64,000 nt of DNA from Candidatus Woesearchaeota archaeon (GTDB lineage Archaea; Nanobdellota; Nanobdellia; Woesearchaeales; JABMPP01), in contig JAGVYD010000016.1 of assembly GCA_018303405.1 (NCBI GenBank), forward strand, positions 1 to 64,000, written 5' to 3'. Shown here piece after piece: positions 29,694-37,912 of the stretch. The notes under the pieces are model-generated. The model did no database searches. It worked only from the letters and a program-made list of their open reading frames with translations, and was not told where the DNA came from. Each line of letters opens with the position of its first letter. The first letter of the stretch is position 1. The translations under genes were made by a program, and so were the position numbers.

Positions 29694-31004
29694 ATGGGAA
29701 AAATAAGCCCGGTATCAGCAAAATATATAGTGCACTCTACAATAGAAATTGAAGGCATCGTCGACAAGCCAGATGTCATCGGTGCAATCTTCGGGCAAAC
29801 CGAAGGGCTTCTTGGGGCAGACCTTGAATTAAGGGAGCTGCAAAGGAGCGGCAGGATTGGGAGGATTGAGGTTAACTCAGACACAAGAGGGGGGAAAACA
29901 CAGGGAGCAATAATCATCCCTTCAAGCCTTGACAAGGCAGAAACAGCAATTGTGGCTGCAGCCCTGGAAATTATCCAGCGCATTGGCCCCTGCAATGCCA
30001 AGATAAAGGTTGACAAAATTGAGGATGTCAGGGTAAGCAAGAGAAAATTTGTCATAGACAGGGCAAAAGAGCTTCTGAAAAACCTGATGGATACATCATT
30101 GCCTGATTCGCAGGAATTGGCTGATGAAGTTTCATATTCGGTCAGGGTTATGGAAGCCACGGAATATGGCAAGGACAGGCTCCCGGCGGGCCCAATGGTC
30201 GATGATTCTGACGAGATAATTGTGGTTGAAGGCAGGGCAGATGTCCTTAACCTGCTCAAGCATGGGTTCAAGAATGTGATTGCTATCAATGGCACCAGCA
30301 TTCCCGAGACCATAATTGAGCTGAGCTCCAAGAAAACTATCACAGCTTTTGTTGATGGTGACAGGGGCGGGGACCTTATCCTAAAGGAACTGGTCACTGT
30401 TGCTGAAATAGACTTTGTCACAAAGGCCATGGATGGCAAGGAAGTTGAGGAAATCACAAAGAAGGAAATTCACAAGGCATTGAGGAGCAGGATTGCTGTT
30501 GAACAGATTAAGATGGAGCTGGCAAAGGAACAGCCAAGGATTATGCAGCAGGCCAACCAAAGCCGTGACTCGCAGGACCAGGGCTTCAGGAGAGGCAACC
30601 TAAGGGACAACAGGGACAGGCGGGGACCGATGATGAGGCAGGGTGTTTCAGCCAGGCCGGCAGGCCCGCCGCCGCAATACGCAGCCCAGCGAAAGCCCCA
30701 GAAAATGCACCCGGATGCCAAAAAAACACTCAAGGAAATGTCTGAGGACCTGATTGGCACAAGAGGAGCATATATCCTGGACGAAAAGCTCAATATTTTG
30801 GGCAAGGTGCCTTTCACTGAGTTAAGCTCAACGCTCAAAAGCCTTAACACAGGCGTCTATGCCATTGTATTTGATGGCTCTATAGACAAGCAGCTTGTGC
30901 TGATTGCGGAGAGGCTGAATGTCAGCTTCCTGATTGGCATGGAAAATGCTGTAAGGCCACAGGAAACAAAGATTGAGCTTATGACACTGAGTGACCTTGA
31001 GTAA
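29694..31004 (+). CDS. dnaG: Archaeal DnaG-type primase
   Basis: 436 residues. The TOPRIM core has [28 protein letters not shown] and [17 protein letters not shown]. The N-terminal [31 protein letters not shown] is specific to archaeal DnaG, which is found with the exosome and aids RNA degradation and has primase activity. A proline/arginine-rich linker (about 285-340) joins a C-terminal domain. The ATG at 29694 has GGAGGT seven bases before it. A TATA box near 29641 gives a short leader. Confidence 0.94.
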
Positions 31005-31130: not shown

Positions 31131-32231
31131 CTAGCAGTCGGATAATGCCTTGAGCTGCTCCAGTGTCTGCATTCCCTTATATGATTTGCCGTCGATTGAC
31201 CAGGTTGGATAAAGGTCAATGCCAAGGGCAGCGCATTCCCCGCTTATGTAGCCATCGGCATCATTGCACTCAAAGAAATTGATTTTGCCTGCCTCCTCCC
31301 CGAACAATGCAATTTGCTCTGTTGTGAATGTGCATTTTTCTGAGCCATAAAGAATGGCTTTTTTCTCCTTCAGGCAGTCTGCCAGGCTTATTGGCACAGC
31401 AGACGCTTCAGTGGCTTCTTCAGCTGAGCCTGGCGTTTCCTGCCCTTCTGTGGATGCGGCAGCGGCCTCTTCTTCCTCAGGAGCAGTTTCTTCGTCTTCC
31501 TGTGCTGGTGCGGTCTCTGAGGTTTCCGCAGCTGCTGTCTCAGTTTCTGCTTCTCCGCCAATTAAAATGACAATCTCAGAGCTTGCCCTGGTCTGGTTGA
31601 TAAACCTGGAATATGCATCCTTCTGCTTCTGTAGAAGCAGGAACCTTTCAATCTGCTGCCTTGTTTCATTTGTAAGCTCAATGCCCTCAAAGGACTCCTT
31701 GGCAAAATTATCGATTTCCTGGGCTGTAATCCCGATATTCAGGAAAACTTTCTCCTCGAGGAATTTGGACAGCAGGAGCTGCTGCTGGATTTCAACCTTG
31801 ACATCATCAAGGGCGAGGCTGTCTTCTGTCAGGGCTTCTTCAAGGGTTTTCCCCTCCGGCAAATCCCTGGAAATCTCATCAATAACAGCCTGGATTTCAT
31901 CCTCAGTCACAGAAATGCCTGCCTTGGCAGCCTCCTGGAATACAAGGACCCTGTCAATTATCTGGTCAAGAAGGACCTGCTTTGTATAGCTTGCCCTGAG
32001 CTGCTCAGGCACCTTTTCGTACTGGGCATCAAGATATTCAGAATAAATTTTTTCTCCGTTGACTGTGGCAGCAACAGCTTCCTCATCCTTAGGCGGATTC
32101 AGGTCGCTGGTTAGCGTCACAACTATTGCAACAACCAAAAAAAGTATGATTAGGCCTAAAATGAAATTCCTGGTTGAATTGCGCTTTCCATTCTTCTTGG
32201 ATTTTCTGGATTTGGCCATTTTATTTACCAT
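31131..32231 (-). CDS. Membrane-anchored SurA-like chaperone fused to a thioredoxin-like domain
   Basis: 366 residues. A basic start, one TM helix (about 22-41), then a SurA N-terminal-like domain: VAATVNGEKIYSEYLDAQYE...ITEDEIQAVIDEI-type helices. An alanine/glutamate-rich linker (about 235-290) follows. The C-terminal domain (ILYGSEKCTFTTEQIALFGEEAGKINFFEC...YPTWSIDGKSYKGMQTLEQLKALSDC) matches VKOR-associated thioredoxins, but the expected CxxC is CTFT, so the redox pair is incomplete. It probably acts outside the membrane as a folding factor. A second ATG four codons in is an alternative start. Confidence 0.78.
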   Translation of the reverse strand: MVNKMAKSRKSKKNGKRNSTRNFILGLIILFLVVAIVVTLTSDLNPPKDEEAVAATVNGEKIYSEYLDAQYEKVPEQLRASYTKQVLLDQIIDRVLVFQEAAKAGISVTEDEIQAVIDEISRDLPEGKTLEEALTEDSLALDDVKVEIQQQLLLSKFLEEKVFLNIGITAQEIDNFAKESFEGIELTNETRQQIERFLLLQKQKDAYSRFINQTRASSEIVILIGGEAETETAAAETSETAPAQEDEETAPEEEEAAAASTEGQETPGSAEEATEASAVPISLADCLKEKKAILYGSEKCTFTTEQIALFGEEAGKINFFECNDADGYISGECAALGIDLYPTWSIDGKSYKGMQTLEQLKALSDC

Positions 32232-32376
32232 TATAAAATGATACTAGTTATTATCTTTTTACTAGTAAATAAACTGTGCCATTAATAAAGTTTGCGGAAA
32301 TTTTCTGCATTTCAGCAGGGCAGGGCGCGGCCGTCGATTGGGAAAATATATATACCATCCCGCACAAGGAAGCTGT

Positions 32377-33690
32377 ATGTATGATGTCATATTGGGCAGG
32401 AGCGAGGAAGACAGGCACATATTCGGTGACAAGGGTGCAGTTTTCCTGGGGAAGCACTATGTCAAAATGGGGCAGACCACCTCGCTTTCCAACAGTATAT
32501 ATCTTGATGTGGCAAGGAGCCATGTTGTTTTTGTCTGCGGCAAGCGAGGGGGCGGAAAGTCATATACAATGGGGATAATTGCTGAAGAAATGGCCAGGCT
32601 GCCGCCTGAGGTGAACAAGAACCTCAGTATTATCATGCTTGACACCATGGGCGTTTATTGGACCATGCGATACCCCAACCAAAAGGAAAAGCCGCTTCTG
32701 GATGAATGGAAACTAAAGCCAATGGGGATGAATGTCCAGATATTTACGCCAGTGGGATACTACAGGCAATATAAGGAAGAGGGCATCCCGACTGATTTTC
32801 CTTTCGCTATCAGGCCCAAGGAGCTGGACCCGGATGACTGGTGCACCACTTTTGAAATAAAGCTGACCGAGCCGATAGGTGTAGTTATAGAAAAAGCCAT
32901 CACCAGCCTCCGCGAAAAAAATTTGGAATATACAATGGAGGACATTAAGGCCGAAATCGAGAAGGATGATACAGCAAACAGGGAAGTTAAGGAGGCCGCT
33001 GTAAACCGTTTCATTTCTGCTGAATCATGGGGGGTTTTTGATGAAAAGGGGACGCAGATCAAGGATCTTGCCATTGGCGGAAAAGTGACTGTGCTTGATG
33101 TCAGCTGCTATGCAACAATGGCATCAGGCTGGAAAATCAAGGCATTGGTCATTGGCCTTGTCGCGCAAAAGCTTTTTGTGGAGCGCATGAAGCAGAGAAA
33201 AGAGGAGGAATTCCAGGACGTGAAAGACAGCCAAAGCTATTTTTCCAGCGCCCCTGAAAAGCAAAAAGTCCCGCTCGTCTGGCTTGTGGTTGACGAAGCG
33301 CATGAATTCCTGCCTTTGGAAGGCGATACTGTTGCCTCTTTCCCGCTGATAACCATACTCAGGGAAGGGCGGCAGCCGGGCATCTCATTGGTGCTGGCCA
33401 GCCAGCAGCCTGGAAAAATCCACACAGATGTCATGACTCAAAGCGATGTTGTGATAGCGCACAGGATAACTGCAAAAATTGACGTTGAGGCCCTGGGAGC
33501 CTTGATGCAGAGCTACATGCGTGAGGGCCTGTCCCTCCAGCTTGACAATCTTCCAAGGACCAAGGGGTCTGCGCTGATTTTCGATGATGTGAATGAAAGG
33601 ATGTACCCGATGAGAATGCGGCCAAGGCTGACCTGGCACGGAGGCGGGAGCCCCAGCGCCCTGAGCGAGCAAAAGAAGTTTGAGTTCTGA
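32377..33690 (+). CDS. HerA-like hexameric ATPase (DUF87)
   Basis: 437 residues. Walker A is VCGKRGGGKSYTM (about 53-65), Walker B is WLVVDEAHEFLP, and the arginine-finger/sensor region is PLITILREGRQPGISLVLASQQPGKI, the usual HerA/FtsK-like order. HerA pumps DNA for end resection with NurA, Mre11 and Rad50, none of which is nearby. The AAAATATATATA box (32341-32352) lies about 29 bases before the ATG at 32377 and sets the start. Confidence 0.87.
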   Translation: MYDVILGRSEEDRHIFGDKGAVFLGKHYVKMGQTTSLSNSIYLDVARSHVVFVCGKRGGGKSYTMGIIAEEMARLPPEVNKNLSIIMLDTMGVYWTMRYPNQKEKPLLDEWKLKPMGMNVQIFTPVGYYRQYKEEGIPTDFPFAIRPKELDPDDWCTTFEIKLTEPIGVVIEKAITSLREKNLEYTMEDIKAEIEKDDTANREVKEAAVNRFISAESWGVFDEKGTQIKDLAIGGKVTVLDVSCYATMASGWKIKALVIGLVAQKLFVERMKQRKEEEFQDVKDSQSYFSSAPEKQKVPLVWLVVDEAHEFLPLEGDTVASFPLITILREGRQPGISLVLASQQPGKIHTDVMTQSDVVIAHRITAKIDVEALGALMQSYMREGLSLQLDNLPRTKGSALIFDDVNERMYPMRMRPRLTWHGGGSPSALSEQKKFEF

Positions 33691-33704: not shown

Positions 33705-35063
33705 TTATTTTCTGACTTTTTTTTCAATTGTGATGGGATCGGTTTTTCCGAATCTGTCCATGTTCCAGTTTTCTATCAGGCTTCTTGCAGAGCTGAATGA
33801 TTTCTTTGGAGGCATTGTTCCATCTGAAAAAGCTGTCTGGTTATGGAGCAAATTGCGGATAAGTGTTTCTACATCCATGCCATCCCTGAAAAATATGTCA
33901 TGAGTCGCAGGAATCAAGCCCATGGTGTCAAGTTCCGGCTCTATATCGATTAGGGCCTTCAGTATGGGCAGCTGATTGAATCCTTCAATGCTTCTTCCGC
34001 TCTGGTTCTTGATTTCCTCAACTGGCATTCCCTGGGCTCTTTTAAGCCCTGCTTTGTAATTGGCGCTGTCAGGTCCCTGTGCTGTATACCTGATGTCATC
34101 ACCTATTGCCTGGAATTTTGGGTCGAATATGAATTTTGGATTGCCGCCAAACTTTGCAATGAAGTGGTGCAGGCTGTCCAAGTATGCATTGATTAAGGCT
34201 CCTTTTGCGCCTTCGCTTTCGTAGATTCGCCTGCCATTTTTTTCTACTCCTGCCAAGTAGCCTGTCGATAACGCAATTGTTGGTTTGATTAATCCGGAAA
34301 GAAGCACGGTTCTCAGACCTTTCGAACCCGCCGGGATTACGCCATAATCTTCCCTGCTTAAAACATGGCTAAGATACTTAAGCCATTCGTGCCTGGATTT
34401 TTCACCTGCTTTCACATCGCTTCCCATCCCTGTCCAAAGCATGGACAATGTCAGTTGGCCATTCAGGAGATTGGTGTACATCATATAACCAGAATGATAA
34501 AATTTAGGTATGCCCAAGCCAGCGAGTTCTTCCCTCATAATGTGATATGGGTCTGTGATTGTTATTTTACTCCCTTGGTCATTCATCTCCCAGCCTTTTG
34601 CGTAATTGACAACCGGAACGCCGGGCTTCAAATATGGCACCAATTTTTGTAGGACAGGCCTAACTGCGTCTGAGGTAACTGCTAGTGGCACCACATCTGC
34701 CTCGTGAAGCGCCAATTGTATAGAATCATCCAGGCTTCCAGTAACCTCAGGGGCAGCGATTACTAAAGTTCCTTCTCCTGCCTCGCGTTTTCCAGTGTCG
34801 TAATATACCCCCTTGGCTAAGTGGTCATACGCTGAGTGTGCGTGCAATTCCCTAAAATCATATTTGCCATCTTGAACTTCCTTGAGCACCCGAGAGGGGC
34901 TAGGATAAAAGTTCAATAGTGTGACTTTATACTCAAGATTCCGCCCAGGAATCGCCCTTTCTTTGTCCAGATATACACTGGCAAGCGCCTGGCCCAGCGC
35001 CCCTGAGCCAACTATTGCAATGTTAATTTGGTTATCTGGCTTTGAGGCTATTATCCCGGTCAT
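33705..35063 (-). CDS. Glycerol-3-phosphate dehydrogenase (GpsA-like)
   Basis: 452 residues, longer than bacterial GpsA (about 330-350). The N-terminal Rossmann NAD(P) motif is NIAIVGSGALGQALASVYL. VVPLAVTSDAVRPVLQKLVPYLKPGVPVVNYAKGWE corresponds to the GpsA VPS...KG region with the catalytic-type lysine. The C-terminal half has GSKGLRTVLLSGLIKPTIALSTGYLAG and GDDIRYTAQGPDSANYKAGL, matching the GpsA helical domain (KN...GD...SRN...G). It would make sn-glycerol 3-phosphate from dihydroxyacetone phosphate. It lies 10 bases downstream of a PlsB-like acyltransferase gene. Confidence 0.72.
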   Translation of the reverse strand: MTGIIASKPDNQINIAIVGSGALGQALASVYLDKERAIPGRNLEYKVTLLNFYPSPSRVLKEVQDGKYDFRELHAHSAYDHLAKGVYYDTGKREAGEGTLVIAAPEVTGSLDDSIQLALHEADVVPLAVTSDAVRPVLQKLVPYLKPGVPVVNYAKGWEMNDQGSKITITDPYHIMREELAGLGIPKFYHSGYMMYTNLLNGQLTLSMLWTGMGSDVKAGEKSRHEWLKYLSHVLSREDYGVIPAGSKGLRTVLLSGLIKPTIALSTGYLAGVEKNGRRIYESEGAKGALINAYLDSLHHFIAKFGGNPKFIFDPKFQAIGDDIRYTAQGPDSANYKAGLKRAQGMPVEEIKNQSGRSIEGFNQLPILKALIDIEPELDTMGLIPATHDIFFRDGMDVETLIRNLLHNQTAFSDGTMPPKKSFSSARSLIENWNMDRFGKTDPITIEKKVRK

Positions 35064-35073
35064 TTTGATCAGC

Positions 35074-36378
35074 TCACGTTCTGGAAGGTTTCATTTTATG
35101 GTAATTTATAATTTGGTTGGCCACACTTGCATACATTAAAAATGCAGCCTCGGTCCCGTCATGCGTCTGCCCCGGCACCAATATCCCATTTTCATTGAAT
35201 ATGACTCTTTTTTTGGATTGGTTGAAAAGTTTTAGTGCCCTCTCAGCAATAGTTTCTGCTGTCTGCCCTTCGATATTTTTGGCCAGGGGGATGTGATATT
35301 CTTTTGCTGTTTGAAGTACATTTGCAATTGCCCTGTATATCTCCTGCTTCGGGATATCATGCCTGCCTGAAAGAATTTCACTGTGAACCTGGCCTGTGTC
35401 AAATTTATCACTGCTTGATTCAGGGAGAAGGGAAAACAAGTGGTCATAATGCTGTGCCTGGCTGCCTTTGAAGATTAAATCCAGCAGTGCGTAAGCCAAG
35501 ATGTTTGTGCTTTGAAGCGGAAAATTGCCCATTACCCTGCCCCAAGCCATCTCCTGGACCATGCCTCTTAAATTTCTCAGTTCCTTGTCGGTTGCCCCTG
35601 GATATTCAGAAAGCAATTTTTTCATGCTAATCGGGGCGCCGTAATATGTTGTCAAATCCCCCTTGAAGCCGGACTTTGCGTGGTCAAAAATTAAGCCCCA
35701 TCTTGCTGAATCTGCATCCTTTTCCCTTAGGGATTTATCCCCGTAGAAGGTATAATCAGGGATTACTTCCGGCACTGAGAGAGTAGGCACAACTGCAATG
35801 TCTTTCCCCAGCCCATGCTTATCTGATATTCTCTGGGCAGCCAGGGAGGGCGCAATAAGCATTGCTTCAAAGGGCTTGATTCCGTTTATGGACAATCCTG
35901 CTGAATACATGAGAAGGTCGTCATCGTCCAAATGAAGATGCGTCAGGTATTTTTGCAGGGTGGCAATATTTCTGTGGGACTCTTCATTTGGGAATTTAAC
36001 GAGAAAATGCCCCATTGCAGGCGCAATAATTCTGTCTTTTCGGGAGGGGGATGTCTTCATTTTCTCGAGAAGCCGTTCCCTTCCGAGTATCTTGGGGATT
36101 GGAAGCCCCAAATCATGGATTAGCGTGCCCTGTAGCACATAATCCCCATGGGACATATGCGTTGACACATAATTCCTTGAGTCGAAAGACGCCATGTGTT
36201 CCGCATCAGATTCTGTGTTGTTATAGATGGCATCATATAAGGAAAGAATCTTTGGCTTCAATAAGCGTGTGGCTATGAATCCCCTTACAGGGCTTTTCTC
36301 AATAGCCATCCTATCCCATATTTCCTGCTGTTCAGGGGGCAGCCCTGACCTTAGATTTGGGACTTTGGGATTTCGCAT
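35074..36378 (-). CDS. PlsB-like glycerol-3-phosphate acyltransferase (predicted)
   Basis: 434 residues. The acyltransferase HX4D motif appears as STHMSHGDYVLQG (HMSHGD, 74-79), close to the PlsB form HxSHxDY, followed by GLPIPKILGRERLLEK. Further on, LLMYSAGLSINGIKPF sits where FPEGTRS is expected, and IAVVPTLSVPEVIPDY plus TTYYGAPISMKKLL match the later PlsB-type blocks. So the fold is well supported but the substrate-binding motif is divergent. The ATG at 36378 fits a TATA box (GATTTAAAAAG) about 26 bases upstream. Partner of the GpsA-like gene. Confidence 0.6.
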   Translation of the reverse strand: MRNPKVPNLRSGLPPEQQEIWDRMAIEKSPVRGFIATRLLKPKILSLYDAIYNNTESDAEHMASFDSRNYVSTHMSHGDYVLQGTLIHDLGLPIPKILGRERLLEKMKTSPSRKDRIIAPAMGHFLVKFPNEESHRNIATLQKYLTHLHLDDDDLLMYSAGLSINGIKPFEAMLIAPSLAAQRISDKHGLGKDIAVVPTLSVPEVIPDYTFYGDKSLREKDADSARWGLIFDHAKSGFKGDLTTYYGAPISMKKLLSEYPGATDKELRNLRGMVQEMAWGRVMGNFPLQSTNILAYALLDLIFKGSQAQHYDHLFSLLPESSSDKFDTGQVHSEILSGRHDIPKQEIYRAIANVLQTAKEYHIPLAKNIEGQTAETIAERALKLFNQSKKRVIFNENGILVPGQTHDGTEAAFLMYASVANQIINYHKMKPSRT

Positions 36379-36453
36379 GCATATGGCCAAGAAACTTCGC
36401 TTTTTAAATCTTTGCCATGTTTAGCATTGAAAAGTAGTGAAAACTCAAAGAAA

Positions 36454-36678
36454 TTATTTTCTTTTGTAGTGCTTCCTCATGCTGTCAAGAATCAGCGACT
36501 CTTTTTCAGGGGCATAAGTCATGGATATGACGCTTGCGATGAACATCATTATGAAAACAAGAGCAAATGCAAACCCGAAGCTGTGCGAGATTGGGAAAAC
36601 AAGGAGCACAGACCCAAGATAGCCAACCATGCTCATCAGCATGAAGCTTGCCGGCAATGGTGCAACGTCAATTGGCAA
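36454..36678 (-). CDS. Small two-helix membrane protein
   Basis: 74 residues with two TM helices (SFMLMSMVGYLGSVLLVFPIS and FGFAFALVFIMMFIASVISM) and a basic C-terminal tail. No ATG fits. A TTG at 36678 follows a good GAGGTGG site by a few bases, and a TTTATAT box lies about 50 bases upstream, so this start was chosen over the TTG at 36696. No family recognised. Confidence 0.55.
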   Translation of the reverse strand: MPIDVAPLPASFMLMSMVGYLGSVLLVFPISHSFGFAFALVFIMMFIASVISMTYAPEKESLILDSMRKHYKRK

Positions 36679-36784
36679 AATACCACCTCTTTTCAATTAT
36701 TTTGTCATTACACACTATTCAGATATAAACTTTTCTTTTCAGTGGGGCGCAAATCTTAAAACACGAATAGTTGGACAAATTCTT

Positions 36785-37912
36785 TCAGTCTCGCAGTATG
36801 AACCGGTCAAGCTGCTTTCTTGCCAGTTCTCTCTTTCTCTGGTGTTCCTTCAGGAATGAGTTTATCTTGTCTATCGCAATCTGCTTGATTTCCCCTGTAA
36901 GCATTTTGCCGCTTTTGTAATCATCATGGATCTGCTTCAGCTTCCCGTCATCCTCCTCAAGATAGCTGAGCCATTGGTAGGGGATATCTATCTCAGGGTT
37001 GCCGCCTTTCTTCCTGTGTTCCTCAATCGTTGGCTGCCCGCCTGAAAACGCATACTTGTTGATTTTTTTCTTGACAGTTGCTTCGTCATCTGTTGTATAG
37101 ATTGTTGTGTTCTCCTCAGAAGCTGACATTTTCGAGTCTGCTGTCAGGCCTGGCAGGAATTTGCAGTGTATGGATGCTGGCTTGTAATACCCCATTCTTG
37201 GCAATATGTCCCTGCTGATCCTGAAATGAGGGTCTTGGTCAATGGCATGCGGGATAAGGCATGGTATGTTCTTCCCGGCCCTGATTGAGGGCAGGAATGC
37301 CGGCACACTCTGCATGGATGTGAAAAATATTTGCCCCACATTTGTTTCGTTCTGGAAGCCGAACACTGCCTTTGTTGTTGAAAAAGTCAGCTTCTTTGCA
37401 ACTTTTATCGCTTCGCGGTAAAGTGTTTTTGCATAATCAATGTCTGAAAATATGAAAGTTTTCTTAGGGTCAAATCCTAATGCAATAATGTCTAATGCGT
37501 TCTCATAACCAAGCTTGTTTGCGTCGTCCAGCTCAAGCCCCTGCTTAAACAAGAATTTCTCATCATCCGTCAGCTGGAAATACAGCTCAGCATGGAATTT
37601 GTCCTGCAGCCACTTGGTGAACATCCACGGGATTAAATGGCCAATATGTGTGTTGCCGGATGGCCCCCTTCCTGTATAGAGGAAAAACTTGTTGCCTTTG
37701 TCATACTCATCCAAGAGCCAATTCATGTCACGATGGCTGAAAAAAAGCTTTCTTCTCAGGAAATGGTGCAATTCCCCTGTATGTTTTTTTATCCTTGCCA
37801 GTAGTTTTTCATCTATGGCTTCTGTTCCAAACTCCTTCACAAGCTTGCCGTAGTCAATTTCCCCCCTGACTTCCCAGGGCGTGACGATGAACTTTTCATG
37901 CTTGTCTGTCAT
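36785..37912 (-). CDS. trpS: Tryptophanyl-tRNA synthetase
   Basis: Charges tRNA-Trp. 375 residues of the archaeal/eukaryotic type: an N-terminal extension KFIVTPWEVRGEIDYGKLVKEFG, the HIGH motif in TGRGPSGNTHIGHL, YFQLTDDEKF, IPHAIDQDPHFRISRDIL and the KMSAS loop ADSKMSASEENTTIYTTDD. Complete and typical. Confidence 0.96.
   Translation of the reverse strand: MTDKHEKFIVTPWEVRGEIDYGKLVKEFGTEAIDEKLLARIKKHTGELHHFLRRKLFFSHRDMNWLLDEYDKGNKFFLYTGRGPSGNTHIGHLIPWMFTKWLQDKFHAELYFQLTDDEKFLFKQGLELDDANKLGYENALDIIALGFDPKKTFIFSDIDYAKTLYREAIKVAKKLTFSTTKAVFGFQNETNVGQIFFTSMQSVPAFLPSIRAGKNIPCLIPHAIDQDPHFRISRDILPRMGYYKPASIHCKFLPGLTADSKMSASEENTTIYTTDDEATVKKKINKYAFSGGQPTIEEHRKKGGNPEIDIPYQWLSYLEEDDGKLKQIHDDYKSGKMLTGEIKQIAIDKINSFLKEHQRKRELARKQLDRFILRD

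What the first reader, a model, noticed from the sequence alone, without database searches (positions are those of the whole stretch)
33705..36378. GpsA-like and PlsB-like gene pair in an archaeon: possible bacterial-type lipid backbone
Seen: a protein with an HMSHGDY (HX4D) motif and further PlsB-like blocks is followed after 10 bases by a GpsA-like dehydrogenase. Known: PlsB acylates sn-glycerol 3-phosphate made by GpsA, while archaeal lipids are built on sn-glycerol 1-phosphate ethers. Inference: this organism may make or remodel ester lipids with the bacterial stereochemistry, perhaps using host fatty acids. The missing FPEGTRS-like motif means substrate use may differ.
Basis: partly seen in the sequence, partly recalled or inferred. 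Interest (0 to 1): 0.72.

Follow-up and report, generated by a model that had tools for sequence, protein, structure and literature searches.

The report
Bacterial-type lipid gene pair in Woesearchaeota
A tiny uncultured archaeon carries, side by side, relatives of the two enzymes that bacteria and eukaryotes use to make the glycerol-phosphate ester core of their membrane lipids, and its genome shows no sign of the two enzymes that start normal archaeal lipids, so its membrane may be built the bacterial way.

Summary
P0002 (35077-36378) is a divergent PlsB/GPAT1-type acyltransferase: a profile of relatives built without it finds it at 3.4e-10 (2000 shuffles reach at most 8.7 bits against 38.4), that family hits solved PlsB at 1.7e-33 and GPAT1 at 1.1e-27, and its model's only significant PDB match is human GPAT1 (2.4e-11). 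P0001 (33708-35063) is GpsA-family by Pfam. The acyltransferase-then-GpsA order recurs in other Woesearchaeota; in J072 and J091 it sits beside herA as here, and J072 shares the whole dnaG-herA-gpsA-AT-trpS block and has canonical motifs. The 95%-complete genome has no detectable G1P dehydrogenase or GGGP synthase, but encodes FabF, FabD, a PlsC-like acyltransferase and a CDP-alcohol phosphatidyltransferase. Best reading: a bacterial-type G3P-ester route, with partial self-made fatty-acid machinery. Caution: P0002 lacks the motif-III G3P-binding arginine and P0001 the arginine of 'SRN', so substrate use by this particular pair is uncertain; no cytidylyltransferase was found; stereochemistry is inferred. 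A 2019 survey reported no PlsB in Archaea. New variant of a known kind.

The parts
35074..36378 (-). PlsB/GPAT1-family acyltransferase (P0002, 434 aa), HX4D at H74-D79, motif IV VP at 197-198, degenerate motif III (158-166)
33705..35063 (-). Divergent GpsA-family dehydrogenase (P0001, 452 aa), GxGxxG, K156, K260, D322, T327, N335 kept; SRN->SAN
35064..35073 (-). 10-base spacer between the two genes; implies one transcript
   Evidence: inference
36403..36408 (-). TTTAAA, TATA-box-like, 25-30 bases upstream of the acyltransferase ATG (leaderless-type promoter, inferred)
   Evidence: sequence; inference
36454..36696 (-). 80-aa ORF of unknown function, conserved beside trpS at the same position in relatives
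36785..37912 (-). Class I aminoacyl-tRNA synthetase (W/Y type), syntenic flank
32338..33690 (+). HerA-like ATPase, syntenic flank, up to 66% identical to Woesearchaeota homologues
29694..31004 (+). Archaeal DnaG-like Toprim protein, syntenic flank

Best explanation
A two-gene operon for the first committed steps of a bacterial/eukaryotic-type glycerophospholipid route in a Woesearchaeota (DPANN) archaeon. Step 1 (inferred from family): the GpsA-like dehydrogenase reduces dihydroxyacetone phosphate to sn-glycerol 3-phosphate with NAD(P)H. Step 2 (inferred from family): the PlsB/GPAT1-type acyltransferase transfers an acyl chain from acyl-ACP or acyl-CoA to it through the HX4D dyad, giving lysophosphatidic acid. 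Step 3 (inferred): the genome's separate PlsC-like protein adds the second chain. Fatty acids can be at least partly home-made (FabF and FabD are encoded). Shown here: homology, fold, gene coupling, syntenic position in relatives, absence of detectable G1PDH and GGGPS. Inferred: activities, stereochemistry, membrane composition. The pair in this genome is fast-evolving and has changed residues that normally hold the substrate phosphate, so it may bind G3P differently from E. coli PlsB.
For: Profile without P0002 finds P0002 at 3.4e-10; family profile hits PlsB 9vuq 1.7e-33, GPAT1 8e4y 1.1e-27, PlsC 5kym 2e-13; model (pLDDT 73, pTM 0.79) matches GPAT1 at 2.4e-11, next squash GPAT. AT-then-GpsA on one strand in G000, G007, G089, G129, G065/J072 and J091, and AT-AT-GpsA in G201, G205, G014, G094. 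Identical block dnaG-herA-gpsA-AT-s80-trpS in J072 with canonical motifs and PF01553 + PF19277 over cut-off. Own genome: no PF13685, no PF01884, no TIGR01768; FabF PF00109 7.0e-53, FabD PF00698 1e-18 next to PlsC-like PF01553 1.6e-6, both in archaeal gene contexts (deoxyhypusine synthase; Pth2-like and class I LysRS-like by reading), CDP-OH_P_transf 1.0e-10.
Against: P0002 lost the conserved motif II Arg (F129) and the motif III Arg (L162) and Glu; in GPAT1 the motif III arginines hold the G3P phosphate (PMC11011501). P0001 lost the Arg of SRN, the GPN motif and the Asn after the active-site-type Lys. No CTP_transf_1 (PF01148) found in this genome; CarS (PF01864), PlsY, UbiA and the rest of FAS not searched. 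PF01884/TIGR01768 may detect divergent GGGPS poorly in this order, and the genome is 95% complete. GpsA can serve redox or glycerol metabolism. The models used alignments that include canonical relatives, so the fold match is not fully independent of the homology.
Confidence: 0.62

Rival explanations
1. Neofunctionalised pair: it descends from a GpsA-PlsB pair but now works on another acceptor. The dehydrogenase reduces a related ketone and the acyltransferase acylates a product that is not G3P, because both proteins lost arginines that normally hold the substrate phosphate.
For: Parallel loss of phosphate-site arginines in both partners; very long branch of P0001, 3.1 changes per site; most relatives keep those arginines.
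Against: Human GPAT4 also lacks the motif III arginine and still acylates G3P (PMC11011501); HX4D, motif IV and the GpsA lysines are kept; the acyltransferase is only 20-34% identical between any two of these syntenic relatives, so fast change is normal for the locus.
Confidence: 0.2
2. Remodelling or salvage only: membrane lipids come from a host, and the pair re-acylates or adjusts imported lysolipids or uses GpsA for redox balance.
For: DPANN are predicted or shown to take lipids from hosts (PMC11035636; PMC11868695); no CTP_transf_1 in this genome.
Against: Coupling to GpsA points to de novo backbone supply; FabF, FabD, a PlsC-like protein and a CDP-alcohol phosphatidyltransferase are encoded.
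Confidence: 0.12
3. Relict pair losing function, with frames still open.
For: Motif losses; no homologue of P0002 found by direct search in 117 relatives.
Against: Two long intact frames with coding-type GC by codon position like their neighbours, intact order with a 10-base gap, and a kept C-terminal PlsB-like tail.
Confidence: 0.05
4. Bacterial contamination or misassembly of the window.
For: Genes are of bacterial type.
Against: Same gene block in independently assembled Woesearchaeota MAGs; flanks are archaeal.
Confidence: 0.01

Closest known systems
PlsB / GPAT1 (glycerol-3-phosphate 1-O-acyltransferase; PDB 9vuq, 8e4y)
   Same: Fold over the whole length, HX4D, motif IV proline, C-terminal helical region ending in a (Y)AN-x-I-type tail
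   Different: 434 aa instead of about 800; motif II Arg and motif III Glu/Arg replaced; encoded directly before gpsA; in an archaeon
GpsA (NAD(P)-dependent glycerol-3-phosphate dehydrogenase)
   Same: Rossmann GxGxxG, both active-site-type lysines, GD...T...N segment; Pfam N and C domains over cut-off
   Different: 452 aa with insertions; SRN->SAN, GPN->GYM, LKN->IKP; far below NCBIfam equivalog cut-offs
PlsC-PlsC-GpsA gene sets in other Woesearchaeota (G201, G205, G014, G094)
   Same: Acyltransferase genes immediately before gpsA
   Different: Short PlsC-type acyltransferases, canonical GpsA
Woesearchaeota bacterial fatty-acid and G3PDH genes reported by Castelle et al. 2021 (PMC8204110)
   Same: Same lineage; bacterial-type fatty-acid synthesis and G3PDH
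   Different: The passages found in that paper do not describe a PlsB-type acyltransferase or its pairing with gpsA

Membership tests
PlsB/GPAT1 family | Significant sequence relationship to PlsB/GPAT1 | tested here: met
   Leave-out profile finds P0002 at 3.4e-10; the family profile hits PlsB 1.7e-33 and GPAT1 1.1e-27; indirect, since P0002 alone gives no relevant Pfam or PDB hit
PlsB/GPAT1 family | Motif I HX4D catalytic dyad | tested here: met
   H74, D79
PlsB/GPAT1 family | Motif III (EG-x-RS) with G3P-binding arginine | tested here: not met
   MYSAGLSING in P0002; met in the syntenic orthologue J072 (FPEGTRSRSG). So P0002 is filed as a divergent relative of the family, not as a canonical PlsB
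PlsB/GPAT1 family | Motif IV proline | tested here: met
   V197-P198
PlsB/GPAT1 family | GPAT_C-type C-terminal region | tested here: inconclusive
   Foldseek alignment of 458 columns with GPAT1 and kept tail; PF19277 over cut-off only in the J072 orthologue
PlsB/GPAT1 family | G3P acyltransferase activity | not testable with these tools
   Needs purified protein
PlsC (short 1-acyl-G3P acyltransferase) | About 200-250 aa single acyltransferase domain, closest to PlsC | tested here: not met
   434 aa; family profile scores PlsB/GPAT1 well above PlsC
GpsA | NAD_Gly3P_dh N and C domains over curated cut-off | tested here: met
   PF01210 33.5 bits (cut-off 23.1), PF07479 40.1 bits (cut-off 25)
GpsA | Active-site lysines, Asp, Thr, Asn | tested here: met
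   K156, K260, D322, T327, N335 invariant in alignment A3
GpsA | Arg of SRN (Arg269 of human GPD1 by my reading) | tested here: not met
   SAN in P0001; correspondence to GPD1 numbering from own knowledge
Archaeal ether-lipid pathway (organism level) | G1P dehydrogenase | tested here: not met
   PF13685 absent in G000, genome 95% complete
Archaeal ether-lipid pathway (organism level) | GGGP synthase | tested here: not met
   PF01884 and TIGR01768 absent in G000; models may be weak for divergent members
Archaeal ether-lipid pathway (organism level) | DGGGP synthase (UbiA) and CarS | not tested

The most novel reading that the evidence does not exclude
A lineage of Archaea makes its membrane from self-made fatty acids esterified to sn-glycerol 3-phosphate through a PlsB-GpsA operon, having lost the G1P ether pathway: an archaeon with a bacterial-type membrane.
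Probability: 0.3. Interest if true: 0.9.

Novelty: new variant of a known kind. Interest (0 to 1): 0.62.

Why it matters
The lipid divide is a main argument in debates on the last common ancestor and on eukaryote origins. A 2019 survey found no PlsB in Archaea (PMC6431249), and a 2025 paper still states that Woesearchaeota lack the capacity to make lipid building blocks (PMC11868695). E. coli PlsB uses essentially only G3P whereas PlsY and PlsC accept both enantiomers (PMC13400652), so a PlsB-type enzyme is the most telling marker for backbone chirality. Expressing the canonical J072 pair and the divergent window pair makes the question directly testable without culturing the organism.

Tried and rejected
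Direct searches with P0002 in genome contigs, viral contigs, phages and plasmids found nothing; the way in was the GpsA partner, which found G089. Contamination was considered and rejected by synteny. A GpsA tree was built but long branches make the position of P0001 uninterpretable. J072's GpsA groups with canonical GpsAs (100/100), so co-inheritance of the whole pair cannot be claimed; replacement of gpsA at the locus is possible. A conserved-peptide scan with alignment A2 was not possible. The BFVD search gave only giant-virus acyltransferases as its best hits, which adds nothing beyond the fold.

Full report
Observation. The two ORFs lie at the given coordinates on the minus strand with a 10-base gap. 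P0001 has both GpsA domains over Pfam's cut-offs but scores far below NCBIfam equivalog cut-offs. P0002 has no relevant direct family or PDB sequence hit.

Way in through the partner. Searching 117 relatives with P0001 found one genome of another family, G089, with a GpsA-like gene directly preceded by an acyltransferase, P0003, with HREHSD and a FPEG-like block. P0003 has PF01553 at 1.5e-6 and matches annotated bacterial PlsB at 2e-6 by tblastn. P0002 aligns to P0003 at 2e-6 in a two-sequence comparison, P0001 to P0004 at 3e-15.

Family membership. A profile of eight relatives built without P0002 finds P0002 at 3.4e-10 (38.4 bits, database size set to 10000), while the best of 2000 shuffles of P0002 reaches 8.7 bits. 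hhalign gives 5.7e-11. The nine-member profile without P0002 hits the PDB chains of a 901-aa glycerol-3-phosphate acyltransferase (9vuq, 1.7e-33), human GPAT1 (8e4y, 1.1e-27) and a PlsC (5kym, 2e-13): the family is of PlsB/GPAT1 type. AlphaFold2 with 9 and 22 sequences gave pLDDT 62 and 73, pTM 0.67 and 0.79. In both cases the only PDB match under 0.001 is GPAT1 (1.1e-9 and 2.4e-11); squash GPAT and PatA appear next among the relevant hits. The alignments contain canonical relatives, so this is corroboration, not independent proof.

Active-site state. In P0002 H74 and D79 and the motif IV proline are kept; the motif II arginine is F129 (preceded by K128); motif III reads YSAGLSING, without the Glu and Arg. 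In GPAT1 the motif III arginines hold the G3P phosphate, yet GPAT4 has none and is a GPAT (PMC11011501). In P0001 GxGxxG, K156, K260, D322, T327 and N335 are kept, while SRN is SAN, GPN is GYM and LKN is IKP. So both partners have altered substrate pockets. Most relatives show canonical motifs; in J091 the GpsA-like protein has a canonical substrate site but an altered nucleotide-binding loop.

Gene coupling and synteny. Acyltransferase followed at once by gpsA on the same strand occurs in G000, G007, G089, G129, G065 and J091; two short PlsC-type genes followed by gpsA occur in G201, G205, G014 and G094. In the phylum sample 78 of 371 genomes match the acyltransferase profile, which also catches PlsC. 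G063, G110 and G076 have the AT without gpsA in that place, and J091 has herA, gpsA, AT up to the contig end. Of 80 herA-anchored loci only three keep a detectable AT near herA (many are cut short), so the locus is patchy. The best herA relatives are nearly all named Woesearchaeota, Nanoarchaeota or DPANN archaea.

Genome context. In this 95%-complete genome no match to G1PDH (PF13685) or GGGPS (PF01884; TIGR01768) was found. GGGPS is also undetected over cut-off in nearly all sampled relatives, so this is typical of the order, not special to this genome; PF13685 was found in 11 of 39. The genome has a ketoacyl synthase (7.0e-53), a FabD-like protein (1e-18) next to a PlsC-like acyltransferase (1.6e-6), beside deoxyhypusine synthase, and a CDP-alcohol phosphatidyltransferase-family protein (its motif is not fully canonical by eye). 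No PF01148 was found.

Literature. Coleman et al. 2019 report no archaeal PlsB or PlsX (PMC6431249). Yokobori et al. 2016 report GpsA in Woesearchaeota and no G1PDH in DPANN (PMC5059525). Castelle et al. 2021 report bacterial fatty-acid synthesis genes and G3PDH in some Woesearchaeota (PMC8204110). A 2025 Black Sea paper suggests DPANN could make bacterial-like lipids, with building blocks from a host (PMC11868695). E. coli PlsB is G3P-specific (PMC13400652). Only open-licence papers were searched, so prior reports may be missed.

Verdict. The pair is real, belongs to the PlsB/GPAT1 and GpsA families as divergent relatives, and is best explained as the entry to a bacterial-type phosphatidic acid route in an archaeon. 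Activity, chirality and membrane composition remain inferred, and this genome's copies are among the most altered of those seen.

Noticed in passing
window 36785-37912: The trpS-like gene is only 33-37% identical to the trpS at the same place in four relatives that are 60-69% identical to each other; possible replacement.
   Followed up: partly
window 31131-32231: SurA_N-like (PF13624 3.9e-14) peptidyl-prolyl isomerase-type protein in an archaeon, syntenic in G065 and G063.
   Followed up: no
L026:4672-5556: Acyl carrier protein domain fused to a PlsC-type acyltransferase in G300 (PF00550 5.8e-12, PF01553 1.5e-22).
   Followed up: partly
one search list, e.g. G082:C3, G062:C7, G178:C11: Many relatives have 790-870 aa frames with a PlsC-like segment, perhaps acyl-ACP synthetase/acyltransferase fusions.
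   Followed up: no
L027:5102-7375, L029:120-2408: PlsC-PlsC-GpsA gene sets with canonical motifs in G201 and G205.
   Followed up: partly
L100: Contig named Candidatus Aminicenantes bacterium carries the Woesearchaeota RIO-DnaG-HerA-trpS block; probably a mislabelled or mixed MAG.
   Followed up: no
L093:4265-5635: J091 GpsA-like protein with canonical substrate site but lost GxGxxG (PEGVWG), the reverse of P0001.
   Followed up: partly
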